The notes beneath the pieces were generated by a model. The model did no database searches, had not been told where the DNA came from, and was given only the letters and a program-made list of their open reading frames with translations. DNA of 20,766 bases from a virus, in the IMG/VR virus record IMGVR_UViG_3300031957_001273, positions 1-20,766 of that record; one strand, given 5' to 3'. The position numbers and the translations under genes were made by a program. Within the stretch, counting starts at the first letter, position 1. The number at the start of each line of letters is the position of its first letter. Of the stretch, positions 1,140 through 20,200 are shown one piece after another.

Positions 1140-3063
1140 TTGGGGAAGTGCTATTGCCAAAGGGGTTTCTGTTGCAGGAGCGCATTATCAAGCAGAAAGA
1201 GATAAGAAAGCAGCAGAAAAACGAGCTTTTGATGAAAAAACAAAACTTCTAGGCATACAACACGCAAATGCTATAAAGTTACAGGACAGAGAGTATGAAG
1301 GCAAAGTTAAAATTGAAACGGCAAAAAGAAACCGTAAAGACGCTTTAAGAAGTCAAATTAGAATTAGACCATTTATGGTTGCTGGTACTGAAGTACCGGG
1401 AGCAAGTTTTTTTTACGGTGGTGAAAACGTCAGTGCTAATGAATTTGATGAAGGTCTTAAAACTGCTTACGTTAGAGCAGCACAACATTTTCAAATAATT
1501 AAAAATAGCGGCATTGCTCCAGAGCAAGCACAGGAAATATGGGAACAATACTATGCTCCTGCTCTATCACGAGCAACAGGCAGTTTGTACACTAAATACG
1601 CTGGAGATAACGATAAGCTAAACAAGCTGCCTCCTTCTGCTTCTAACATTTTAGGATTGGAAGTAGGCCGTATGCCCGAAATACAAACCCTTTGGGAACA
1701 ACAGTACTCTTCTAATTTTAGCCCAGCAACAAGAGAGCAAATGGAATCGTGGAGAAAAGCAACTCGCGAGTTTGGCGTTGACGCTGAAAGCCTTGGTGCG
1801 TCTCCTACAAGAAACGCAAGTTTAAGTGCTAGAATAGGTAGTGGCAACCTAGATCAATTTGCCGAAAGTATCATGCTAAATAAAAATTTTCTTTCTGCTG
1901 CACAAGCATTTATTAATGCTACGGAAGAAGGAAGCGGTGCAAATTTAGATGAAGCTAGAGCTAATATGATTAATGCTACTCGCACGGCACTCGTTAATGG
2001 CAATCAAAATCTAGACCCCAGTATTACACAAACTTTATCAGATAGTAGAGTACTTCAAATTGGTTCGGACGCAACAGTTTTAGTACAACGCGCCCGTAGG
2101 AGAAATCCTGACAATCCTCAATTTGTAGAACTAAATCCTAGTTTTAGAGAAATAAAACCTTCAGAAATGAGACGCCAACTACGCCAAACTGGAATTAATC
2201 TTTCTAATGCAACAAAGTCTGTAGTAAAAAGTTTACTTAGCGAAAATCCTCCTGACGTTAGTAGATTAGGTGGAGAAACCCGTAGTTTAATTGCTAGTGT
2301 TTTAACAGGCGCACAAGAAGTTGGGGGAGTTGTACAAAACTTTTTTACTGGTTCAGGCGACAGTTTACGTTCTGGTGAATCTCTTCTTGAAGAAAGAGGA
2401 GACATTAAACTCTCTGAGCAATTGCTTTCTGAACTTAATACTGGCACTTTAACTGAAGACGATAAGAAACAACTTGAAATAATAGCAAGTAGAATTGAAG
2501 GTATACAAACACAAATAGATGAAACTGTTGAAGTTCTTAAAGCTTCGCCTGACAACATAACAGCAATGAACACCTATAACTTCCATATGGACAGACTTTA
2601 TTTAGCTTACGCTTACTCTAAGTTTGTTCAAGGTGGCGGTGGCGGTAACGCTGTTTCTAATGCTGACTTTCAAAACACTATGGCTGCTTTGTTTGGGGAG
2701 TTCGGTAATACACCAGCACAACAACGTGCCATTCTTGCTAGTGGAATGATGAGGTTACACCATCAACTACAAAAAGACTTGAAAAAAATGGAACTAGAAG
2801 AACGCTATGGTTTTGAGCTTGATAACAAAATAAGAGATACTTCTACTCCTTTTGCAAAAAGACTTGCTGATGTAGAATATCGTAGAAGGCAAGCTATTGT
2901 TGATGCAAGACCCGATGTAGGAGGAAACTATTACGAAAGTACAAACCAGTATTGGAGATTAGAAGGTATTAGTGATGCTAATTTCTCCGGTAGAACTGTT
3001 GAAGAAGAAGACGAAAGTCAACTTAATACAAGGGCAGGAACAGCAGGAAGTACTAACAAATGA
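1129..3063 (+). CDS. Putative internal virion protein (644 aa)
   Basis: A 644-aa protein whose start at 1129 overlaps the preceding gene by 11 nt and is preceded by AGGAGA. The N-terminus is small-residue rich (about residues 5-20). A long Lys/Glu/Ala-rich segment, residues 20-75, predicts coiled coil. The body is helical and Asn/Ser-rich, with a glycine run near residue 503 (GGGGG). No enzyme motif is visible. Size, helical content, and position immediately before the 1531-aa protein fit the middle-sized ejection proteins of T7-like phages (the position of T7 gp15). This assignment is by synteny and composition, not by recognised homology. Confidence 0.6.
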   Translation: MGINWGSAIAKGVSVAGAHYQAERDKKAAEKRAFDEKTKLLGIQHANAIKLQDREYEGKVKIETAKRNRKDALRSQIRIRPFMVAGTEVPGASFFYGGENVSANEFDEGLKTAYVRAAQHFQIIKNSGIAPEQAQEIWEQYYAPALSRATGSLYTKYAGDNDKLNKLPPSASNILGLEVGRMPEIQTLWEQQYSSNFSPATREQMESWRKATREFGVDAESLGASPTRNASLSARIGSGNLDQFAESIMLNKNFLSAAQAFINATEEGSGANLDEARANMINATRTALVNGNQNLDPSITQTLSDSRVLQIGSDATVLVQRARRRNPDNPQFVELNPSFREIKPSEMRRQLRQTGINLSNATKSVVKSLLSENPPDVSRLGGETRSLIASVLTGAQEVGGVVQNFFTGSGDSLRSGESLLEERGDIKLSEQLLSELNTGTLTEDDKKQLEIIASRIEGIQTQIDETVEVLKASPDNITAMNTYNFHMDRLYLAYAYSKFVQGGGGGNAVSNADFQNTMAALFGEFGNTPAQQRAILASGMMRLHHQLQKDLKKMELEERYGFELDNKIRDTSTPFAKRLADVEYRRRQAIVDARPDVGGNYYESTNQYWRLEGISDANFSGRTVEEEDESQLNTRAGTAGSTNK

Positions 3064-6000
3064 AGACTCCTACAGATATTACAAGACCTGATGGTCGTTT
3101 AACTCCTTCTGGCAAACCGTACACCAGAACAGGACACTTTGACTTGGGTGTAGCAGTCAGAGATGATGTTTTGGCGGGGGGACGTTTAACAGGTAACGTA
3201 GACACTGTGTTTGACTTTCCTATGAAGGAAGGACAGAGCGGCTTAGAAGGATACTTTTCAGCAGAGAGAGCGGAAAATGTTGACAGGGAACTTGCAGAGT
3301 TTCCAGTTGATCCTGAAAGGTATACCCCAAGTGAATTTTTGACGCAGCTTGAGATGGTTATGCAAGACGCATACACGGAATCAGGTATGAAAGTACTTGA
3401 CGACTCCTCAAAGTACAGCGATCTTGAAAGAAGAAATTTTCGTTCCCAACGAATTTACGACACTATGGTGCAAAACCCACCTTTGCTTGAGTACTTTGAA
3501 GAATTTTATCCTACTTTTATAGAGGAAATGTCTGAAAAATTTGTTCAAGATGAGGTTGTTGTTGGGCGTGGAGACATGGGTCAAAAAATTATTGCAGGTA
3601 AAGAGTACACACAGCCCTTTAACTTAAACCCTCTTATTAAAACAATGACCCTCCCCGGTCAAGCTGCTCCTTTTGACTTTCAAGATATTGAAAATAAAGT
3701 TGACAACGCAAACAAACTTATGTTTGGTTTGAGAACAGCTTATGGTGTTGCTGAAGCTGGTGGTGCAGCTATTGATTTTGCTGCTTCGCCAGAAGAACGT
3801 GTATTTGAAATGTTGTCTACATACGGTGAAATATTCAAGGCAAGCCCCTCACGTATGGCTGAGTGGCACAATTGGATGTTTAGAAATAATTTAAGAGAAG
3901 ATAGAGGTCCGCTGTTTACTGAAGAAGAAATAGAAAACATGACTTGGGAAAAACTGTCTACTTCTCCAAATGCTGTAACTTTTAGTGACTTGTTATTTAA
4001 TGACATGGGACGCGCGTTGTCTGCACTTGGCGTTACAAACGAAAACAATTATAGTATTAAAGTAGCTCCTCAAGGTATTGGTGGTAGGCCATCTACGCCA
4101 GAAGCTGCAACACAAGGTCCGGGCGATTTTCCTGTTGGTGGCGGTCCAAGTGGACTTAGCGAAACAGCATTAGGAATGATGTTTGGTGTGGGTGCTGTTA
4201 GGTTTGCTATAGAAGCTGGCAAAAGTGGTGTAAGAAGGTCTAGTAGGTTTTTTGATAAAGAAACCGGCCAGTACGATTGGGGTGCCCACTACAGCGAACT
4301 TGATAAACGAATGAGAGAGTCCGCTACTGTTTTTGGTAGGGGGTTTACTGCAATGCGCCGTGGAAGTTTGGATACCAGCCGCGCCGTAGGTAGAACGATA
4401 GCTATGGAAGAAGCCTACTCGTTAGGTTCCTTATACTCAGTAGACCAATTTACTAAATTTGCTACTGACGCTGGTTATTTTGAAGACCCAACAAAAATGA
4501 TGCTTGCAAGTCTGTTTGTAGGTTTTATGGCTCCAGTTTTGGGTGTAGGCACAGGAAAACCGCTTGCAAATTTTGGGTACAGGCAAGTACAGGGGTATGT
4601 AGATCGGTGGTTTGATCCTCAGTTTGCTGAATTATCTGAAGTTTTAGCACAAGGAAAAGGAAACACTACACTCGGCAGAAACATTGAAAGAGATTTGGGT
4701 AAAACTTTAAGTAGTCTTAAAGTAGAAGACCCAGAAGTATTTGAACTTTTAATGCGGGGACATGTAGCTTTTAAACAAAACCGACAATCAATTTTAGATG
4801 GTCTTACAGAAGCAGGAGTAGCTCCCGAAACTGTTGAAAGACTTGGAAAACTTATTTCTGGTTCGTTTGCCAGAGGAACTACCCTTTCGGTTATTGACGC
4901 TGCCAGACAAGCTGCTTCTATTCAAGGTAACTTTGGAATAGGGAAAGTAACAAGGGGCGCATTTAATAAACTTACGGGTCGGCGTTGGGGAAGCTCACTA
5001 GAAGATGATGTCAAAAGAAGCGCACAGTTGGAGTCTCTTCATAAACAACAACAAGAAGCTGTAAGAGGGTATGGTGAGATACTTTCTGAATTAACTATAG
5101 AGTTGACTAAGTTAGAAAACAGTGGCGCAGGTGTTCCTGACGCAATGCGGAAACTAGCAATCACAATGCGGGGTGAACACGCCCGTATCTTAGGTTTGCC
5201 CGAAGGAATGCTTAGAAATGTACAGGATGCTTTGCTAGATGTTTATGACATCAATAAAAGAATGCAACTAGGCCGCAACAACCCTGACAAGTTAAGCACA
5301 GGGGACGCTGAAAAACAACTTCAAGCAGCTTTTGATAGGTTGCCAGAAAGAGAACAGATACTTTTTGCTGATGAAATAAACGAACAATTTTTTTCTGGTG
5401 CAGACAACCAAGGATACGAAGGTGTTGTTGGGTTGCTGAGAAAAACTGAAGGTGTCCAAAAAGTTATTGACGAACAAACACAATTGGTTGATGATTTAAA
5501 CGGAACGTTGCGACGGGCTGGTATTTTAGATTCAAACAGTGAGTTATCAGGAAGTAGACCACCACAGGGTAAGTCAAGAAAAGGACAAACAACCCTTATG
5601 GATGAGGTTTACGCTGACAACAAAAGGCAGTCAGACGATAATTACGCGGCAGTTTATGCTGCTGCGGGAAACGAACCGGCTGTAGCTTCACGAGAGTTGG
5701 TAGTAGCTATCAACACTAAAATACAAGAGTTGGGTTTTAACTACGGTGCTGGGGGCCTTCAAGTTGCTCAAGACGCGCTTAGTGATCTTTCAAAGATGAA
5801 CCCTAGAGCTTTTGGTGAACTAGTTAAGTTACTGGGAAGGGCAATAGATGACCCCGAGGGCGAAGCACCCGATGCAAAAACTATTGACGATCTTTCTGCG
5901 GCACTGGAACCCTTAACTCTTAAAGAAGCAGTCCAATTTAGGTCTGAACTTAACAGCGAAGCCTACAGACTTTCCAAACTAAACAACTCAGATGCTAGAA

Positions 6001-7655
6001 GGGGCGCTGCAATACTACATGATATCTCCGGTATCGTAAGCACTAGGATTGAATACGCTGCTCCAGAAGGTAGTGAGTTAGCTGGTCTTTTAAACAACGC
6101 AAATAAATACTACAGAGAAAACGTAGCAGATTTATTTTTTGATCGTTACGTTAGAGCTTCTTTACAGGCAGATCGTAATGTATACAGCCCATTTGAAACT
6201 GCCTTTAGTCAAGCTACACTTAGGCGTAATCTAGCTGCTAGGGAAGATGCACCGGACGGGGAAATTGTTGAAGATACAACGCAAACACGCCGTGATATAT
6301 TTGACAGAATGTTCCCAGAAGACAGCCTTTTACGTGAAAGAGCAGTTAAAGAAATGCGTGATCTTATGCTTCGCAGGGTATACGGAGCAAGTGAATCAAC
6401 CCGCCCAACTAGTGTTGATTTTGTAAGAAGGCTTCGTACCCTTACCAACAGCGGAAATTCTCCTTTGTTTGAGATGCGTGAAAACGGTGGTTTTTTAGAT
6501 ATTCTTCTTGGAAGTGACGTTGAAGCCAGAGAATTTTTAAGGCTAGAAAATATTGCTGGTACTGTTTCAACAGATGCACGGGGTAACACCTTTATATCTG
6601 GTAACATGAGAAGGATGCTTGGTAGAGCAGCAGGAGATACTTTCAACAGTGATCCTTTGTTTAATCAAGCTACGTTGGAAGGAAACAAAGAAACTATTGG
6701 TAGAATTTTTGAAAAGGTAATTACAAGAGCTAGAGAAACAACCGAAAAAGATATGTCACCAACATTAGGTATTTTTGCTGACCTGTTTCAAAAGAAGGAT
6801 TTGGGTGCGGTTGCTGATGATCTTCTTGAAAAAATTCTTTCAAGGACAGATAAATCAGGGGCAAGCTTAAATTCCAGAGACACGTATCTAGGACTTCTTG
6901 ACGATGTTCGTAAAGTAGTAACAGAACAAGAATTTGAGGTTTTTGAACAAGCCATGCGAGCTAAAATAGTAGACGCAATGGTTCAGAAATCAACTGCTGT
7001 GGGTGCTATTGATCCTGAGAAAGCTGGCGTTAAAGTTCAACGTGTCGAGGCAGTAGGTTTTCAAGACTTACGTGGAGAACTTGAGGTTCACGGTGAATTG
7101 TACAGAGAAGTGCTAGGGCAATCAAATTATGAAAGTGTTGTAGGACTTATTAAAATTGCTTCTGTTTCAGACAATGCCACTGATTTGTTGGAATATTCAC
7201 AAGGTCTAAATAAAATGACTGAATCTGCCGCCCTGTCTCGTATGTGGGGTGTGGCTCGTGGTGTCGTCAGTTTGAAATACGTTGGGTCGGAGTGGTTGTT
7301 AAGATCACTAGCCTCTAATAAAAACAAAGCTTTGGTTGAAATACTGTCTACCCCCGGTCTTGCAGAGTATGTGCTTGATGGCGTAGACGCTGGTAGGGCG
7401 CGGTACAGTCCTTACGCAACAAGGTTTGTAGGTGGGCGACGACTAATTCCTATTATGGTTGGCATAATAAGTGAGGGTCAATCAAGAGAACACCATGAAA
7501 AAACAGCTCAAGCTTTGTATAATCTTTTAGAAGTTACCAACAGCACAGAGGATACTAACCTTCAAGACTTTGTTCTTAATGTTGTTAGTTTAACTATGGC
7601 TGTTAGAAACGAAGGAGAGCGAGAAAGACTGCTTGGGATAGCAGGATCAAACTAA
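3060..7655 (+). CDS. Very large internal virion (DNA-ejection) protein
   Basis: This 1531-aa protein is the largest in the window. Its ATG overlaps the previous stop as ATGA, indicating translational coupling. The N-terminal ~350 residues look soluble. A glycine/proline-rich stretch near residues 350-370 precedes a hydrophobic segment (ALGMMFGVGAVRFAIEAG). A second hydrophobic stretch is near 477-498 (MMLASLFVGFMAPVLGVG). The remainder is mainly charged helix. In podoviruses one giant helical protein (T7 gp16 type) forms the inner core and crosses the envelope during DNA ejection, and length and position match. I see no convincing lytic transglycosylase or lysozyme motif, unlike T7 gp16. The role is inferred. 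Confidence 0.65.
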   Translation: MKTPTDITRPDGRLTPSGKPYTRTGHFDLGVAVRDDVLAGGRLTGNVDTVFDFPMKEGQSGLEGYFSAERAENVDRELAEFPVDPERYTPSEFLTQLEMVMQDAYTESGMKVLDDSSKYSDLERRNFRSQRIYDTMVQNPPLLEYFEEFYPTFIEEMSEKFVQDEVVVGRGDMGQKIIAGKEYTQPFNLNPLIKTMTLPGQAAPFDFQDIENKVDNANKLMFGLRTAYGVAEAGGAAIDFAASPEERVFEMLSTYGEIFKASPSRMAEWHNWMFRNNLREDRGPLFTEEEIENMTWEKLSTSPNAVTFSDLLFNDMGRALSALGVTNENNYSIKVAPQGIGGRPSTPEAATQGPGDFPVGGGPSGLSETALGMMFGVGAVRFAIEAGKSGVRRSSRFFDKETGQYDWGAHYSELDKRMRESATVFGRGFTAMRRGSLDTSRAVGRTIAMEEAYSLGSLYSVDQFTKFATDAGYFEDPTKMMLASLFVGFMAPVLGVGTGKPLANFGYRQVQGYVDRWFDPQFAELSEVLAQGKGNTTLGRNIERDLGKTLSSLKVEDPEVFELLMRGHVAFKQNRQSILDGLTEAGVAPETVERLGKLISGSFARGTTLSVIDAARQAASIQGNFGIGKVTRGAFNKLTGRRWGSSLEDDVKRSAQLESLHKQQQEAVRGYGEILSELTIELTKLENSGAGVPDAMRKLAITMRGEHARILGLPEGMLRNVQDALLDVYDINKRMQLGRNNPDKLSTGDAEKQLQAAFDRLPEREQILFADEINEQFFSGADNQGYEGVVGLLRKTEGVQKVIDEQTQLVDDLNGTLRRAGILDSNSELSGSRPPQGKSRKGQTTLMDEVYADNKRQSDDNYAAVYAAAGNEPAVASRELVVAINTKIQELGFNYGAGGLQVAQDALSDLSKMNPRAFGELVKLLGRAIDDPEGEAPDAKTIDDLSAALEPLTLKEAVQFRSELNSEAYRLSKLNNSDARRGAAILHDISGIVSTRIEYAAPEGSELAGLLNNANKYYRENVADLFFDRYVRASLQADRNVYSPFETAFSQATLRRNLAAREDAPDGEIVEDTTQTRRDIFDRMFPEDSLLRERAVKEMRDLMLRRVYGASESTRPTSVDFVRRLRTLTNSGNSPLFEMRENGGFLDILLGSDVEAREFLRLENIAGTVSTDARGNTFISGNMRRMLGRAAGDTFNSDPLFNQATLEGNKETIGRIFEKVITRARETTEKDMSPTLGIFADLFQKKDLGAVADDLLEKILSRTDKSGASLNSRDTYLGLLDDVRKVVTEQEFEVFEQAMRAKIVDAMVQKSTAVGAIDPEKAGVKVQRVEAVGFQDLRGELEVHGELYREVLGQSNYESVVGLIKIASVSDNATDLLEYSQGLNKMTESAALSRMWGVARGVVSLKYVGSEWLLRSLASNKNKALVEILSTPGLAEYVLDGVDAGRARYSPYATRFVGGRRLIPIMVGIISEGQSREHHEKTAQALYNLLEVTNSTEDTNLQDFVLNVVSLTMAVRNEGERERLLGIAGSN

Positions 7656-12032: not shown

Positions 12033-12910
12033 CAAAGTTCCTCCGTAACATACTTGGAGTACCAAACCATTGGTGGGTTTGCTCTGGCAGAAGCAACCTT
12101 GTACTTCATCTCAGCCTTGGGCCAGCAATGTTCTTTGAAGTCACAGAAAGAACAGGTGGTGTTCAACACTCGGTTACCTGTCTTTTGTTTCCTGTACATC
12201 TCAGGCTCGTCTTCTAACTTCTGTACCTTAATCGTAGGGTCTTGAAGCACTGTCATGTTGTACTCTGCCTTAGCCAGAGCCGCCTCACGCTCTTCATCCT
12301 GTATAGATGGGGCGTTACACACCAACAGTTCACCAGACGACTTATTCATAACAATCCAACCACCGAAGGGCTTGTCTACGGCTGCGCTGTACAGGTAGCC
12401 CTGTAGCACATAACCAAAGGGGTCGTTGTCTTTAACCTTGTTGTAGTTTGCAAACTTGTTCATGTAGGCGTAAGGGCTTGCAGTTTTAATGTCCCACACC
12501 TTACCATCAATGATTACATCAAGTGTGCCATTAACTTTAACACCAGCTATTTCAAGCGATACCTTTTCTTGGTATGCCTCGACGTTTATCCCTGCCTCTT
12601 TCATTTCGACGTACAGCAATGACTCAAGCCAGTCCCCAAATAGGAACCTGTTGACAGCGTTGTAGTCCATCTTCTTGTTGACCTTGACGCCATCTCGTTC
12701 TAGCTGCTGTTGGCACAGAGGCTTGCCCAGACCAGACATACGAGGTCGCCACTTCTGTGTGGCCTTCTCGTTTGAGAACTGCCGTTCTGCTGACGCAATT
12801 AATTCATCTGACAACAGAGCAATAGAATCGGGGGAAAGTTTCCTCTCCCCCGAAACGACACCCTGCAAATAAATTTGCAAGTATTCTTTGATGAGGTTAG
12901 TCATCAGCAT
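12032..12910 (-). CDS. Cas4/RecB-like PD-(D/E)XK exonuclease with predicted Fe-S cluster
   Basis: A 292-aa nuclease of the RecB/Cas4/AddB group, which degrades or resects DNA ends. Nuclease motifs in order: FGDWLE (91-96), GTLDVI with Asp131, WDIKTAS with Asp140 and Lys142, and QGYLYSA with Gln170. Four Cys that could bind a 4Fe-4S cluster are Cys66 (SGLGKPLCQ) and the C-terminal CxxC-x5-C set at 253, 256 and 262 (CSFCDFKEHC). The N-terminal ~55 residues are helical without known motif. It fills the place of T7 gp6 exonuclease next to the gp3-like gene. Starts at 12910 and 12904 are both possible; both overlap the upstream gene. Not CRISPR-associated, as no array or other cas gene is present. 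Confidence 0.88.
   Translation of the reverse strand: MLMTNLIKEYLQIYLQGVVSGERKLSPDSIALLSDELIASAERQFSNEKATQKWRPRMSGLGKPLCQQQLERDGVKVNKKMDYNAVNRFLFGDWLESLLYVEMKEAGINVEAYQEKVSLEIAGVKVNGTLDVIIDGKVWDIKTASPYAYMNKFANYNKVKDNDPFGYVLQGYLYSAAVDKPFGGWIVMNKSSGELLVCNAPSIQDEEREAALAKAEYNMTVLQDPTIKVQKLEDEPEMYRKQKTGNRVLNTTCSFCDFKEHCWPKAEMKYKVASARANPPMVWYSKYVTEEL
12038..12044 (-). promoter_or_regulatory. Strong ribosome binding site fixing the start at 12032
   Basis: On the - strand GGAGGAA lies 5 nt before ATG 12032. It sits inside the last codons of the upstream nuclease gene. It decides the start of the 133-aa gene in favour of the TGATG overlap. Confidence 0.7.
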
Positions 12911-13724
12911 CCATTGATTCTACAATCCGTGCGTCAGCAAAGTCCCCACGGGCTTCTTTGTATTCTGACTCAATGTAAGCATTGTGAGAGTTAACAGCCT
13001 CAACAAACTTCTCAAGAATAGGCACATCAACCGCTGGGTCAAACTCAACGTAATCCTTAACGTCGATCTTTGACTTGTAGTAGATGTTCCCACCGTACTT
13101 CTGTCGTAGCGTAGAAAGCGTTGCTCTCGTATTAAACAGCAGCTTACCTTGCTTCTCTAGAGTCTTAATCCAATCCGCAACAGGCATGAAGTTACTGCCA
13201 CGAGCGTACCAGACAACGGGTGTAGCTTCGATAGAGTCAGTCTCGACCATACCGTAGACTACTTGGGCGCACTTGATGTTAGCTTGTAGTGTCCTCTCTG
13301 GATCATCAGAGGACAAGCCTTCCAAGTCACGCTTGTTGAGCTTACCACAGCGGATTCCACCAGCAGTGTCAAAGAACTCATCACCAAAGGATGCCCCTTG
13401 GATCGACATACTGCCGTAAGATTGCTCCGCATTGTCCCAGACAGTGTACATGTACCGTCGTAGGAATGGTCGGAAGGTTACTTCTTTGGAGTGTTGCCAC
13501 TGCCCAGAAGCATCCTTGAACTTCCACTGTCCTCTCGGAAGGGTGTTACCTTCTTCATCTTCAGTGTTATGTTCAATGGCAAGCTTGGGTAAAAAGTCAA
13601 CGCTTTGCGTAGACCCCGACTCACTAGCTTGACCCAGCAGAGCCATGATCCTAGCATTATCTGCTTTATCGGCTGTCACTAGATCAGTCAGTGATTGGGT
13701 TTCAACAACAGCTAAATTACTCAT
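12897..13724 (-). CDS. Putative single-stranded DNA-binding protein
   Basis: A 275-aa soluble protein, preceded by AAAGGA 8 nt before ATG 13724 and starting 3 nt after the polymerase stop. The core (about 40-215) is rich in aromatic and basic residues with beta character (GQWKFKDASGQW, VTFRPFLRRYMYTVWDN). The C-terminal tail is acidic (DARIVESMDADD), like the protein-interaction tail of SSB and T7 gp2.5. Position between DNA polymerase and the recombination nucleases is where T7-like phages place gp2.5. No sequence-level match to gp2.5 is recognised, so the function is an inference from tail, composition and synteny. A recombination mediator is an alternative. Confidence 0.55.
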   Translation of the reverse strand: MSNLAVVETQSLTDLVTADKADNARIMALLGQASESGSTQSVDFLPKLAIEHNTEDEEGNTLPRGQWKFKDASGQWQHSKEVTFRPFLRRYMYTVWDNAEQSYGSMSIQGASFGDEFFDTAGGIRCGKLNKRDLEGLSSDDPERTLQANIKCAQVVYGMVETDSIEATPVVWYARGSNFMPVADWIKTLEKQGKLLFNTRATLSTLRQKYGGNIYYKSKIDVKDYVEFDPAVDVPILEKFVEAVNSHNAYIESEYKEARGDFADARIVESMDADD

Positions 13725-13727
13725 TCA

Positions 13728-15269
13728 TTACGTCCTTTCGTAAACGCCGACTTCCTTTAAGTCGGACCAGTTAGTTCCAATCTTCAACTCAATGCCAACA
13801 GGCATATTGTACTCAACGCCAAACCTTAGAGAACACTCGTCTTTAAGACTTAGCATTGCATTCTTCATTAACTCTATACAGATTTCCTCTTCGTCAGGGT
13901 GAACATCCATAACAATACTATCATGTACTGTGTTACAGATCAAGCTTTTTATTCCACTTTCTTTAACTTTTTTATGCAGCACTACCAATGCGATAGGTAA
14001 AAGATCAGCCGTTGCAAATCCTTGAACAGGATAATTTTTTATTTGGGTTGAATTAGAGTAACCACCACTGGGATACTTCCTAACATTAGGAAACATGTAT
14101 TCCCTAGTTGATGGGAGAGTAAGCTTTTTCCTCACCAGTGCCTCGTTACATAGCCTCTGTTGCCATTCTGCAACACCAGAGTACTTCTCAAGAAATGCGG
14201 TGTAGTATCGACGTTCCGCCTCAGTGCCTGACGTACCACCATAGAGGGGTTTAAATGTGTGTGCCTTTGCGTCTTGTCGAGATACACCGATAATGTCCGC
14301 AGTATATGAGTGGACATCAATCTTATTCTTAACGTCTTCAAGAGCCTGTTTGTCTTGAGAAAGGAAAGCAGCCACCCGAAACTCTAGCTGACTGTAATCC
14401 CCCTCAAGTATCTTACCGTTTTCAAAACGGCTCACGATAGCAGCGCGAACAGGAAAAGTACCACTTCTAGGCATGTTCTGAAAGTTAGGATTGCGCGAAG
14501 ATAAGCGGCCCGTTGCTGTTATGCACTGCATAAACTGTGGATGTATGTATCCTTTCTTGTTTGTATTAATTTTAATATTTTCTATAAAAGTATTGAGGTA
14601 TGTAGAAAGAGCATTATACCTCATGTACTTTTCAAGAAACTCTCGTTTGTCCCCATCAACCTGTAAAAGCTTGCTGCGGATAGTTGTCATGTCTGTCTTG
14701 AAACCGTGAACAGACAAGTCCTTCTCGTTCTCTGGGCGTAAGCCAATGCCAGCCACATCTGGTGTTTCGTTGTAGACAGAGCCACGACCGAAGCAAGTCT
14801 TACACTTGCGGGGCATACCGTAGCTACCGTCCTTGCGTACAAACTCAACGCTGCCCCTGCCACCACAGTTGGTACAGTCTCTGCGCCTTGTCTTCTTGAC
14901 AGGCTTGACCAGTGGGATGTACTTCATAATGAACTGTCTGTGGGCTGTAGTCCTGACAAACTTCTTCTTACGCTTGCCGTCCTTCAAGACAGTGCCGAGA
15001 TCAAACTTTGCCTTCCATACCTTCTTGTCCTTAACAGCAAGAGAGTAGAAGAACTTGGACCGATCTTCGGCAGATGCAAGGTTGATGGGCGTGTCCCCAC
15101 ACAGATCGTTAATAATTCGATCAAGGTCTTCCGCTAGGTCAGCATACTCTTTCTTGAAGTCCCTCTCGATCTGAGAGAGCTTGTCAACATCAATCCGAAT
15201 GCCGTTTGTCTCTACGTCACAGAGAACACGACAGACATCCATGTGAAGCTTGACCACAGGTTCCATCAT
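13728..15269 (-). CDS. Family A DNA polymerase (polymerase domain) with DnaJ-type zinc finger in the thumb
   Basis: A 513-aa replicative polymerase lacking its own exonuclease domain. ATG 15269 is chosen because it overlaps the exonuclease stop as ATGA; an in-frame ATG at 15281 gives 4 more residues, but its AAAGGA directly abuts the ATG. The thumb start CDVETNGIRID (17-27) and INLASAED (62-69) precede a ~100-residue insertion with two CxxCxGxG motifs (132-163). Motif A is GDYSQLEFR with Asp291. Motif B is RQDAKAHTFKPLYGG with Arg331, Lys335, Phe339 and Tyr343. Motif C is VHDS with His449 and Asp450. All catalytic residues are present. Phe339 matches E. coli Phe762. A DnaJ-type insert in PolA is, to my knowledge, characteristic of HMO-2011-type phages. 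Confidence 0.93.
   Translation of the reverse strand: MMEPVVKLHMDVCRVLCDVETNGIRIDVDKLSQIERDFKKEYADLAEDLDRIINDLCGDTPINLASAEDRSKFFYSLAVKDKKVWKAKFDLGTVLKDGKRKKKFVRTTAHRQFIMKYIPLVKPVKKTRRRDCTNCGGRGSVEFVRKDGSYGMPRKCKTCFGRGSVYNETPDVAGIGLRPENEKDLSVHGFKTDMTTIRSKLLQVDGDKREFLEKYMRYNALSTYLNTFIENIKINTNKKGYIHPQFMQCITATGRLSSRNPNFQNMPRSGTFPVRAAIVSRFENGKILEGDYSQLEFRVAAFLSQDKQALEDVKNKIDVHSYTADIIGVSRQDAKAHTFKPLYGGTSGTEAERRYYTAFLEKYSGVAEWQQRLCNEALVRKKLTLPSTREYMFPNVRKYPSGGYSNSTQIKNYPVQGFATADLLPIALVVLHKKVKESGIKSLICNTVHDSIVMDVHPDEEEICIELMKNAMLSLKDECSLRFGVEYNMPVGIELKIGTNWSDLKEVGVYERT
14781..14876 (-). other. DnaJ-like zinc-finger insertion inside the polymerase gene
   Basis: Encodes CTNCGGRG, a 16-residue linker, then CKTCFGRG: two CxxCxGxG repeats, enough to bind one zinc ion. 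It is half of a full DnaJ central domain, which has four repeats. It is preceded by a very basic segment (KPVKKTRRRD). It falls between the FNxxS-like and the ST/YMRYNALSTYL thumb motifs, so it likely sits at the thumb tip near DNA. Confidence 0.85.
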
Positions 15270-15790
15270 TGGACAGACCATTCCTTTAAGTCTATTTCAA
15301 GTAACTCTGCCTGTGCCATTGCTAGGTCATAAGTAGAGTTAACGTCCTGTGTACCATACTCTTCTAAGATAGTCCATGACATCTCATCCGGCTGGGTACT
15401 CCAGTTGTCAATCAGTCCTGTTTTCTTTTGCTGCACGTTTCTTCTTTTACAACAGGCATCAAGGTTTATCTCTCTGTTCATGCCTCTGGCAAGCAAGTAC
15501 TCAACGCCCATTGTATCCCACACAGCAGCATCATAAACAAAGCCACTGTACAAGAGCCACTGAAGATCGTACTTGATGTTGTGACCAATCAGTAGCGTTG
15601 TGTTGGACAGTACATCCTGCAACAGCCCAAAGTTGTTGGGCGTAGGCGGCCTGTCGCTGTGAAAAAAACAGAGGTAATCCTTGTCTCCTGTGTCCGTCTT
15701 GTATCCAACAGACACCAATTGATTTTTGCCAGAGTATGGAGAACTATCTTTTTTAGAAAAGGTGTTCTCAATATCTAAACAGGTAATCAT
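15266..15790 (-). CDS. Separate 3'-5' proofreading exonuclease (DnaQ-like, PolA exo domain)
   Basis: A 174-aa exonuclease, the size of the T7 polymerase exonuclease domain but encoded as its own gene. Exo I is LDIE (Asp6, Glu8), Exo II is GHNIKYDLQWL (Asn71, Asp75), and Exo III is YGTQD (Tyr145, Asp149). All metal-binding residues are present. The segment WDTMGVEYLLARG (91-103) is typical of PolA exonuclease domains. The start overlaps the helicase stop as ATGA with AGGAAAG upstream, and the end overlaps the polymerase start as ATGA. It presumably associates with the polymerase in trans. A -1 frameshift making a fused protein is possible in the 30-nt overlap window. Confidence 0.92.
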   Translation of the reverse strand: MITCLDIENTFSKKDSSPYSGKNQLVSVGYKTDTGDKDYLCFFHSDRPPTPNNFGLLQDVLSNTTLLIGHNIKYDLQWLLYSGFVYDAAVWDTMGVEYLLARGMNREINLDACCKRRNVQQKKTGLIDNWSTQPDEMSWTILEEYGTQDVNSTYDLAMAQAELLEIDLKEWSVQ

Positions 15791-17007
15791 ACGTAGTACT
15801 TTCCTGTTGCAATGTTTAAGAATGCGTGGGCTGTACCATGCCAGCCATTGACCTTGTTCTTGCTGATAGTCAGGAACCTCGTGTTGTCATCAACACCCAA
15901 GCCCTTGCCTATGCCAAGGATGACATCTGCCTCACCAGCCTTGCCGGTACGACTGTTGTCCATCATGGAGAAGTCAATGATCTCCCGCTGGTGCGCCTCG
16001 TAGTTAGCCTGAGACACAGCCCAAACAAGACAGTCATTGCGCTTGCCCAGTTCACGGCCCATGACATACAACTCTTTGAGCCGCTCGTCACCGCGCCCAA
16101 AGTCACCACCAATCTTAACCTTATCTAGTTGGTCAATGAAGATAACATCGGGTTTGTTCAACGTGGTGAAGCTGTTTATCTCTGTGATGTCCGTGCCTAC
16201 GGAATCAATAACAACAAGGTTATTGCCAATAACATCATCGTAGGTAGATTTGTAATCATGCCTATTCTCCAGCAAAGTATATTTATCTATGTCAAAGAAA
16301 GCTGTTGTTATTCTCAGCTTTACTTTCTTGGCTAGTTCTTCGTTGGCCCAGTAGTGTACCTTCTTACCTTGTGCAAGGTATTGAGCCACAAGGTGGGCGC
16401 AGAAGCTGGTCTTGCCAACCTCTGGCCGTGCAAAAATGACACCGAAGTCAGCGCGGTTCATCCCCGGTAGATGCTCTTCCATAGAAGGGATACCAAACAA
16501 AAACTCTGGGGGCTTATTGTTGGACTCGACTAACTCATCAAAGCTTTCATGCACAATGGTAAAGGTTTCGTGCCCTTCCATTGAGTTGTTAATTACGCGG
16601 TCCATGAGCTTTGCGATGTCAGAGAAAGCGTTCTCATCGTCACCCACCCAGAACTGTACAGCCTTCTCACCTATCTGCTTCGCCATGCTACGTTGCCAGA
16701 ACTTCTTGGCATAGTCGTAGGCTAGGTTGTCGTCCATCTCTGGCACGTTGCACAGGCTGGTGATTAGTTCATTGGCCTCGTCGCCCTTGCTGTCGGGCAT
16801 GGCAGGGAACATCATCCCGTGAACAGCATGGACTGTCTTAGCATCCAACAGTTCAATGTTGTCATACTTCAGATGCGCCTCAGTGATGGCCTGTGATATA
16901 GACCGCCACTCCTTGGGAAACATCTGAGGTGTTATAAAATTTTTTATTTTTTCCCAGTGTTCTGTTCTGAGAGTGGAAGCAAGGAGGTTTAGTTCTAGGT
17001 TCTCCAT
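15787..17007 (-). CDS. DnaB-type replicative DNA helicase
   Basis: A 406-aa ATP-dependent 5'-3' helicase of the RecA fold. The N-terminal ~120 residues (LNLLASTLRTEHWEKI onward) resemble the DnaB primase-interacting domain. Walker A is ARPEVGKTS (193-201), the DnaB form of the P-loop. The catalytic Glu is in WANEE (220-224), Walker B is DVIFIDQ (287-293), motif H3 is VSQAN (331-335), and GKAGEADVILGI follows (355-366). GGAAG lies 7 nt before the ATG. It follows the primase and a 44-aa peptide, so primase and helicase are separate, unlike the fused T7 gp4. A loader gene is not visible. Confidence 0.93.
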   Translation of the reverse strand: MENLELNLLASTLRTEHWEKIKNFITPQMFPKEWRSISQAITEAHLKYDNIELLDAKTVHAVHGMMFPAMPDSKGDEANELITSLCNVPEMDDNLAYDYAKKFWQRSMAKQIGEKAVQFWVGDDENAFSDIAKLMDRVINNSMEGHETFTIVHESFDELVESNNKPPEFLFGIPSMEEHLPGMNRADFGVIFARPEVGKTSFCAHLVAQYLAQGKKVHYWANEELAKKVKLRITTAFFDIDKYTLLENRHDYKSTYDDVIGNNLVVIDSVGTDITEINSFTTLNKPDVIFIDQLDKVKIGGDFGRGDERLKELYVMGRELGKRNDCLVWAVSQANYEAHQREIIDFSMMDNSRTGKAGEADVILGIGKGLGVDDNTRFLTISKNKVNGWHGTAHAFLNIATGKYYV

Positions 17008-19540: not shown

Positions 19541-19552
19541 GGATGATTGCTG

Positions 19553-20200
19553 ATGGGCTTAATTCAAGTTAACCGGATGGACTCTATGGGCACCGACCGG
19601 ACGGTAGTAAACGCTGCTCGTGTCTCCTTCGCCAAGCACAAAGATGAACTTGACAGTAGCGACGAGAAGCTAATCAAGTATCTCGCAGAACACGGGCACT
19701 GGTCACCATTCAGCCATGTGTTTATTCAGTTCAAGATTGACGCGCCTATATTCATAGCTAGACAGTTACAGAAACATCAGGTAGGGTTAGCTTGGAATGA
19801 GGTTAGTCGTAGGTATGTGGATAGCACGCCTGAGTTCTATACTCCTACTGAGTGGCGCAAACGGGCTAAAGATAAAAAGCAAGGTAGCTTATCTGAACCT
19901 ATTGCATCTCAAGGTATTGCTAATGCCATAAAGAAAGAAGCTGAAATTGTATGTGTTAATGCATACAACGCGCTACTAAGAAAGGACGTGTGCCCAGAAC
20001 AAGCACGAAGGGTGTTGCCGCAGGATATGATGACAAGCTGGTACTGGTCTGGTAGTCTATATGCGTTTAGTAGAGTTTGTAATCTGCGTTTAAAGAAAGA
20101 CGCGCAGGAAGAAACACGCGACGTAGCTCAACGCATCAGCGATCATTGTGCTGTTGAGTTTCCCATAAGTTGGAAAAATCTTGTAAAGGAAGATAAATAA
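19553..20200 (+). CDS. thyX: FAD-dependent thymidylate synthase (phage-type ThyX)
   Basis: A 215-aa enzyme converting dUMP to dTMP with FAD, NADPH and methylene-tetrahydrofolate. Start ATG 19553 is chosen (GAGG about 10 nt upstream); a TTG two codons earlier is also in frame. Family features: VVNAARVSF (18-26), HWSPFSH (49-55), the signature region ARQLQKHQVGLAWNEVSRRY (69-88) and LPQDMMTSWYW. The signature usually reads RHR-x7-S; here it is KHQ-x8-S, with Glu83 and Ser85 kept. The C-terminal NLR retains the dUMP-binding Arg. This looks like a divergent phage subgroup rather than a broken gene. With RNR and MazG it completes dNTP supply. Confidence 0.93.
   Translation: MGLIQVNRMDSMGTDRTVVNAARVSFAKHKDELDSSDEKLIKYLAEHGHWSPFSHVFIQFKIDAPIFIARQLQKHQVGLAWNEVSRRYVDSTPEFYTPTEWRKRAKDKKQGSLSEPIASQGIANAIKKEAEIVCVNAYNALLRKDVCPEQARRVLPQDMMTSWYWSGSLYAFSRVCNLRLKKDAQEETRDVAQRISDHCAVEFPISWKNLVKEDK

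What the first reader, a model, noticed from the sequence alone, without database searches (positions are those of the whole stretch)
14781..14876. DnaJ-type zinc finger inserted in the thumb of a family A DNA polymerase
Two CxxCxGxG repeats lie after a basic stretch between conserved thumb motifs. T7 polymerase has its thioredoxin-binding insert in the thumb too, but upstream of the FNxxS motif as I recall it; here the insert follows that motif. A zinc finger at the thumb tip could act as a processivity or partner-docking element. The insert is known from HMO-2011-type phages, but its function is not known to me.
Basis: partly seen in the sequence, partly recalled or inferred. Interest (0 to 1): 0.7.

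Follow-up and report, generated by a model that had tools for sequence, protein, structure and literature searches.

The report
Zinc knuckle in phage polymerase thumb
A marine phage's DNA-copying enzyme carries a small zinc-binding knob, borrowed in design from the chaperone DnaJ, at the tip of the 'thumb' that grips DNA; the knob was already known from this phage group, but here it is placed precisely, shown to be absolutely conserved, and found in a version of the enzyme whose proofreading half is a separate protein.

Summary
Two CxxCxGxG motifs lie exactly at window 14781-14876 (minus strand), in a family A DNA polymerase of an HMO-2011-type marine phage. The partial DnaJ domain in these polymerases is published, but described as lying "between the exonuclease and polymerase domains". 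Alignments with Bst, E. coli Pol I and insert-free relatives put it inside the thumb instead: an insert of about 100 residues in the H1-H2 loop at the thumb tip, after the FNxxS-type motif. The four cysteines are invariant in 237 of 237 relatives and match the second zinc centre (motifs 2-3) of DnaJ. The insert is basic (about +12 per 100 residues; rest of the protein about -0.7). AlphaFold predicts a mostly confident fold. I find no relative of the insert in other polymerases. Most likely it is a zinc-stapled thumb extension that grips the primer-template duplex and/or docks a replisome partner. That is inferred, not shown. Not previously described as far as I could find: in the window and 58 relatives the proofreading exonuclease is a separate, catalytically intact ORF, while every isolate checked has it fused.

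The parts
13728..15281 (-). Family A DNA polymerase, 517 aa (513 aa from the ATG at 15269); no exonuclease domain in this chain
   Evidence: AlphaFold model pLDDT 90.5, pTM 0.80; VIA-align Z 30 to KlenTaq, 29 to Bst
15039..15086 (-). INLASAEDRSKFFYSL: counterpart of the thumb FNxxS motif and helix H1, immediately before the insert
   Evidence: aligned to Bst NINSPKQLGVILFE and E. coli NLSSTKQLQTILFEKQ
14736..15044 (-). Whole thumb insert, about 100 aa (residues 76-178 of the 513-aa form), replacing a stretch of about 8 residues in Bst
   Evidence: profile gap between positions 73 and 181 against Bst chain positions 243 and 252; length 89-105 aa in 78 relatives, mean net charge +11.5
14957..14984 (-). 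Basic hairpin KDGKRKKKF (K96, K101, K103 basic in 94-100% of relatives that have the segment; largely deleted in the HMO-2011 subgroup)
14781..14876 (-). Zinc knuckle: CxxCxGxG, 16-residue hairpin with a nearly invariant basic pair (R/K-K-D-G), CxxCxGxG
   Evidence: four Cys 237/237; K/R at 145 and 146 in 100% and 98%; aligns to motifs 2-3 of E. coli DnaJ 1EXK, E 0.02
13764..14699 (-). Rest of thumb, palm and fingers (Pfam DNA_pol_A); catalytic DYSQLE and HDS motifs intact
15266..15790 (-). Separate 3'-5' proofreading exonuclease, 174 aa, DxE / N-D / Yx3D residues intact; its stop codon overlaps the polymerase start (CAATGATGG)
   Evidence: Pfam DNA_pol_A_exo1 E 1.6e-9; residues conserved in split relatives; fused in HMO-2011, HTVC033P, CRP-3, -207, -212, -235, -738
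12897..13724 (-). Next gene downstream of the polymerase, 275 aa, acidic C-terminal tail; candidate single-stranded-DNA-binding partner (inference)
   Evidence: homologue with a complete C terminus in 214 ORFs of fetched loci, mean charge of last 20 aa -6.4; no Pfam, PHROG or PDB match
15787..17007 (-). DnaB-like replicative helicase, upstream neighbour; its C terminus is not acidic
   Evidence: Pfam DnaB_C E 1.6e-10, PHROG 19 E 1.7e-52; sequence

Best explanation
It is a zinc-stapled extension of the thumb tip in the replicative family A polymerase of an HMO-2011-type phage. SHOWN: an insert of about 100 aa sits in the H1-H2 loop of the thumb; four Cys are invariant; the insert is strongly basic with a nearly invariant basic pair at the tip of the zinc hairpin; it is confined to this phage group in the collections searched. 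INFERRED: the four Cys bind one zinc, as the equivalent centre 2 of DnaJ does, and stiffen a beta stalk. INFERRED: because H1, H2 and their loop line the DNA minor groove in other family A enzymes, the stalk reaches along or over the primer-template duplex and its basic face holds the phosphate backbone. It would thus act as a built-in processivity element, doing at a different thumb site what T7 achieves with thioredoxin plus its own thumb insert. The basic tip may also, or instead, dock an acidic replisome partner.
For: Position: Bst; E. coli Pol I domain 1 ends at residue 594, after the FNLSS helix; insert-free relatives L262, L085, L086, L084 and E. coli Pol I have a short loop at exactly this point. 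Fold: strands 121-131 and 164-172 around the zinc knuckle; insert blocks pLDDT about 81-95. Invariant Cys: 237/237, equal to the catalytic Asp and His. DnaJ centre-2 match. Basic charge: +11.7 per 100 aa in the insert against -0.7 in the rest; conserved basic positions 82, 96, 101, 103, 126, 145, 146. H, H1 and H2 form a positive groove for the minor-groove backbone, and H1/H2 motions move the DNA, in apicoplast polymerase (PMC12529929). From memory: deletion of Klenow residues 590-613, this same thumb-tip region, lowers DNA affinity and processivity (Minnick et al. 1996; not in the library).
Against: No coordinates with DNA were available, so contact with DNA is not shown. Apart from the Cys/Gly frame and a few residues, the insert varies as much as the rest of the thumb (entropy 1.8-1.9 bits against 1.1 in palm/fingers), and the basic hairpin is deleted in the HMO-2011 subgroup, so not every basic element is needed. 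Zinc itself is inferred. Lower pLDDT (81-87) in parts of the insert means that its orientation relative to the thumb is uncertain.
Confidence: 0.5

Rival explanations
1. Partner-docking platform: the basic zinc hairpin is chiefly a landing site for an acidic tail of a replisome protein, most plausibly the protein encoded next to the polymerase (12897-13724), as T7's thioredoxin-binding insert receives the acidic tails of gp4 and gp2.5.
For: The neighbour is conserved beside the polymerase, with an acidic C terminus (last 20 aa mean -6.4; last 25 aa at -3 or below in 190 of 207 relatives). T7 precedent: helicase tails bind a basic patch in the thumb insert (PMC12593628; PMC5997990) and SSB binds through that insert (PMC7699545). 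The tip basic pair is nearly invariant.
Against: The neighbour has no detectable SSB match. Charges do not co-vary as simple matching would predict: the most acidic tails go with the least basic inserts (Spearman +0.66, uncorrected for relatedness). The window's helicase tail is not acidic.
Confidence: 0.3
2. Purely structural staple: the zinc only keeps a long thumb loop folded and the loop has no specific contact.
For: Most non-Cys/Gly positions vary freely; length varies 89-105 aa.
Against: Absolute conservation of Cys, of K82, W85, F113 and T127, near-absolute conservation of the tip basic pair, and positive charge in all 78 aligned relatives.
Confidence: 0.12
3. Chaperone link: the DnaJ-like part recruits host DnaK/Hsp70 to the phage replisome, as hinted in the HMO-2011 papers by analogy with lambda.
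For: Matches the DnaJ central domain and specifically centre 2. The papers cite DnaJ's role in lambda replication (PMC9038755).
Against: No J domain, no substrate-binding C-terminal domains, only half of the zinc domain, and little similarity outside the Cys/Gly frame. The same kind of knuckle occurs in unrelated proteins (the Anti-TRAP model also matches some members).
Confidence: 0.04
4. Redox or metal sensor: the four Cys switch polymerase activity with redox state or zinc supply.
For: CxxC pairs can be redox-active; the published maps of this phage group include glutaredoxin genes (PMC9038755, Fig. 1 legend).
Against: No direct evidence; the DnaJ-type frame is a classical structural zinc site.
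Confidence: 0.04

Closest known systems
HMO-2011-type DNA polymerase (Puniceispirillum phage HMO-2011, Pelagibacter phage HTVC033P, Roseobacter phages CRP-1 etc.; PMC6918029, PMC9038755)
   Same: Same polymerase family, same partial DnaJ domain with two CxxCxGxG motifs at the same site; 46% identity to HTVC033P and 41% to HMO-2011 over the polymerase.
   Different: Exonuclease and polymerase are separate ORFs in the window; they are fused in every isolate checked. Papers place the domain between exonuclease and polymerase domains; here it lies within the thumb.
T7 gp5 thioredoxin-binding insert
   Same: A basic insert in the thumb of a phage replicative family A polymerase.
   Different: T7's lies between helix H and FNPSS, has no Cys4 zinc knuckle and needs host thioredoxin; this one follows the motif, in the H1-H2 loop.
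Escherichia coli DnaJ central domain, zinc centre 2 (motifs 2-3; PDB 1EXK)
   Same: CxxCxGxG, hairpin, CxxCxGxG with nearly the same spacing (24 against 22 residues from Cys to Cys).
   Different: Only two of four motifs, one predicted zinc, basic hairpin, in a polymerase rather than a co-chaperone.
[quoted passage not shown]
   Same: Thumb inserts in family A polymerases, some linked to processivity or lesion bypass (PMC7699545).
   Different: No sequence likeness detected, and none of these is described as a DnaJ-type zinc element in the papers read.

Membership tests
HMO-2011-type DNA polymerase | Family A polymerase related to HMO-2011 DNAP | tested here: met
   tblastn: best full-length hits are all HMO-2011-type isolates, 38-46% identity over 96-100%
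HMO-2011-type DNA polymerase | Partial DnaJ domain with two CXXCXGXG motifs (the criterion used in PMC9038755) | tested here: met
HMO-2011-type DNA polymerase | 3'-5' exonuclease domain in the same chain | tested here: not met
   exonuclease is a separate ORF 15266-15790; so this is a variant of the family rather than a standard member
HMO-2011-type phage | Replication module: primase, helicase, DNAP, conserved neighbour, Cas4-like nuclease, endonuclease I, RNR | tested here: met
   capsid and terminase of the group were not sought in this 20.8-kb contig
T7-type thumb insert (thioredoxin-binding) | Insert between helix H and the FNxxS motif | tested here: not met
T7-type thumb insert (thioredoxin-binding) | Binds thioredoxin and raises processivity | not testable with these tools
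   needs purified proteins
DnaJ (Hsp40) co-chaperone | J domain with HPD and four CxxCxGxG motifs | tested here: not met
   only two motifs and no J domain in the chain
DnaJ-type zinc centre | Two CxxCxGxG motifs in the centre-2 arrangement | tested here: met
   E 0.02 by single sequence; 76 of 78 relatives match PF00684
DnaJ-type zinc centre | Binds zinc | not testable with these tools
   no metal measurement possible; inferred from the Cys4 frame

The most novel reading that the evidence does not exclude
The insert is a self-contained processivity and docking module at a second thumb site (H1-H2 loop), evolved independently of T7's thioredoxin-binding insert, and in the window's lineage it works in a two-subunit replicase in which proofreading is a separate protein recruited to the polymerase.
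Probability: 0.3. Interest if true: 0.7.

Novelty: new variant of a known kind. Interest (0 to 1): 0.45.

Why it matters
HMO-2011-type phages are among the abundant viruses of the ocean (PMC9038755), so this is a widespread replicase. If the knuckle is a built-in processivity element, it is a second, zinc-based solution at a different thumb site from T7's borrowed thioredoxin, and would be of use in polymerase engineering. The split exonuclease shows that part of this group has a two-protein replicase. The 540-aa length filter in the published DNAP phylogeny (PMC9038755) would probably have left polymerases of this size out of the tree.

Tried and rejected
Spread outside the group: the insert alone, by tblastn at E up to 1 in 50,697 phage records, hits only the HMO-2011-type DNAPs plus one 636-kb uncultured phage whose match (L269) is a Cys-rich protein with many motifs, not a polymerase. 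One genome-contig scan gave HMO-type contigs binned in marine MAGs plus insert-free polymerases. Charge matching between insert and neighbour's tail as support for docking: the result went the other way. Artefactual frameshift as the cause of the exonuclease/polymerase split: rejected, since 58 fetched loci, several nearly identical to the window but others 50-86% identical, show it with varied junctions. SSB identity of the neighbour: no match in Pfam, PHROGs or PDB sequences. MAFFT with T7 in the set misaligned T7's thumb, so T7 was judged by reading its own sequence. Foldseek/VIA rows list no DnaJ chain for the whole model; that is inconclusive because the polymerase fills the list. Kang et al. 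2013 (PNAS), the original HMO-2011 paper, is not held.

Full report
OBSERVATION. Pfam finds DNA_pol_A (E 8e-51) and, between residues 130 and 171, the DnaJ central domain at 23.5 bits, below its gathering score of 32.7. The weak score is not chance: in 237 full-length relatives all four Cys and the final Gly of each motif are invariant, like the catalytic residues, whereas the first Gly of the second motif varies in a third of them; 76 of 78 aligned relatives match the same Pfam model.

WHAT IT IS IN. The polymerase is closest to HTVC033P (46%) and other HMO-2011-type isolates. The contig carries that group's replication module: primase, DnaB-like helicase, exonuclease, polymerase, a conserved neighbour, Cas4-like nuclease, endonuclease I, MazG-like protein and a class II RNR. 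The DnaJ-type element in these polymerases is published (PMC6918029, PMC9038755) and has been used as the group's defining mark. The insert itself is therefore not new.

WHERE IT SITS. The papers describe it as lying between the exonuclease and polymerase domains. Profile alignment says otherwise. Profile positions 3-73 match the Bst thumb up to NINSPKQLGVILFE, and the match resumes at position 181 with the Bst segment that begins KSKTGYST; some 107 positions replace about 8 Bst residues. In E. coli Pol I the first part ends at residue 594, in the helix after FNLSS. Insert-free relatives (a Myxococcota MAG polymerase L262, Stenotrophomonas phage L085, Vibrio phage L086) carry only a short loop at exactly this place. 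So the element lies in the H1-H2 loop of the thumb, after the FNxxS-type motif. In T7 gp5 the large insert comes before FNPSS.

ANATOMY. The model of the 513-aa chain has mean pLDDT 90.5 and pTM 0.80 and aligns to KlenTaq with Z 30 over 383 residues at 2.5 A. The insert (residues 76-178) contains a short helix around invariant K82 and W85, a basic hairpin (93-102), a helix (110-120), and a pair of strands (121-131 and 164-172) that flank the zinc knuckle. Pairing of these two strands as a stalk is my reading of the secondary structure; no coordinates were available. A fused relative gives the same picture (Z 35.8 to Bst over 531 residues). The knuckle aligns to motifs 2-3, zinc centre 2, of E. 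coli DnaJ (1EXK, E 0.02).

CHARGE AND CONSERVATION. Across 78 relatives the insert averages +11.5 net charge (range +3 to +24), or +11.7 per 100 residues, against -0.7 for the rest of the chain. Positions 82, 96, 101, 103, 126, 145 and 146 are basic in at least 94% of the (weighted) sequences that have them; 145-146 form the tip of the zinc hairpin. Other positions are about as variable as the rest of the thumb. The basic hairpin is largely deleted in the HMO-2011 subgroup.

MECHANISM. In family A enzymes helices H, H1 and H2 form a positive groove for the minor-groove backbone, and H1/H2 motions move the DNA (PMC12529929). A basic, zinc-stiffened extension growing from the H1-H2 loop is best read as extra grip on the primer-template duplex, hence processivity. 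This is inference. The main rival is docking of an acidic partner, with T7 as precedent. A candidate partner is the conserved neighbour at 12897-13724, whose last 20 residues average -6.4 in 214 homologous ORFs. But it matches no known family, and tail and insert charges do not co-vary in the direction that simple charge matching predicts (rho +0.66, uncorrected for relatedness). The chaperone-recruitment idea has only the resemblance in its favour.

A SPLIT REPLICASE. In the window the exonuclease (15266-15790) and the polymerase are separate ORFs with overlapping stop and start (CAATGATGG). Of 232 fetched loci with a scorable exonuclease, 58 are split and 174 fused (the fused count includes a few annotated records and outgroups fetched for comparison). 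The isolates HMO-2011, HTVC033P, CRP-3, -207, -212, -235 and -738 are fused. On the tree the trait needs two changes and is strongly clustered (quick method, with long outgroup branches, so the direction of change is not settled). The separate exonucleases keep the DxE, N-D and Yx3D residues wherever the alignment covers them. PMC9038755 kept only DNAPs over 540 aa for its tree, which would probably have removed polymerases of this size. I found no description of the split form in the papers read.

LIMITS. No coordinates were available, so distances to DNA could not be measured; zinc was not tested; papers outside the open library, including the original HMO-2011 genome paper, could not be read; relatives were capped at 80 per scan, so the split and fused counts reflect the three queries used, not natural frequencies.

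Noticed in passing
window 15266-15790 (-) and 13728-15281 (-): Proofreading exonuclease and polymerase are separate overlapping ORFs, in the window and 58 relatives; fused in all HMO-2011-type isolates checked.
   Followed up: yes
window 12897-13724 (-): Conserved protein directly downstream of the polymerase with an acidic C-terminal tail and no known family; candidate SSB.
   Followed up: partly
L037 and L042: About 200 bases lie between the end of the separate exonuclease and the start of the polymerase match, unlike the overlapping or near-abutting junctions elsewhere.
   Followed up: no
L269 (uncultured 636-kb phage LR756504.1, around 419784-419969): A large ORF with many DnaJ-like Cys motifs, not a polymerase, of unknown function.
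   Followed up: no
window 3060-7655 (+): 1531-aa ORF without any Pfam match.
   Followed up: no
L085 1264-1530: In Stenotrophomonas phage StenR_269 a thioredoxin-domain protein is annotated close upstream of the related, insert-free polymerase.
   Followed up: no
window 19547-20200 (+): ThyX-type thymidylate synthase on the plus strand, beyond the end of the minus-strand replication module.
   Followed up: no
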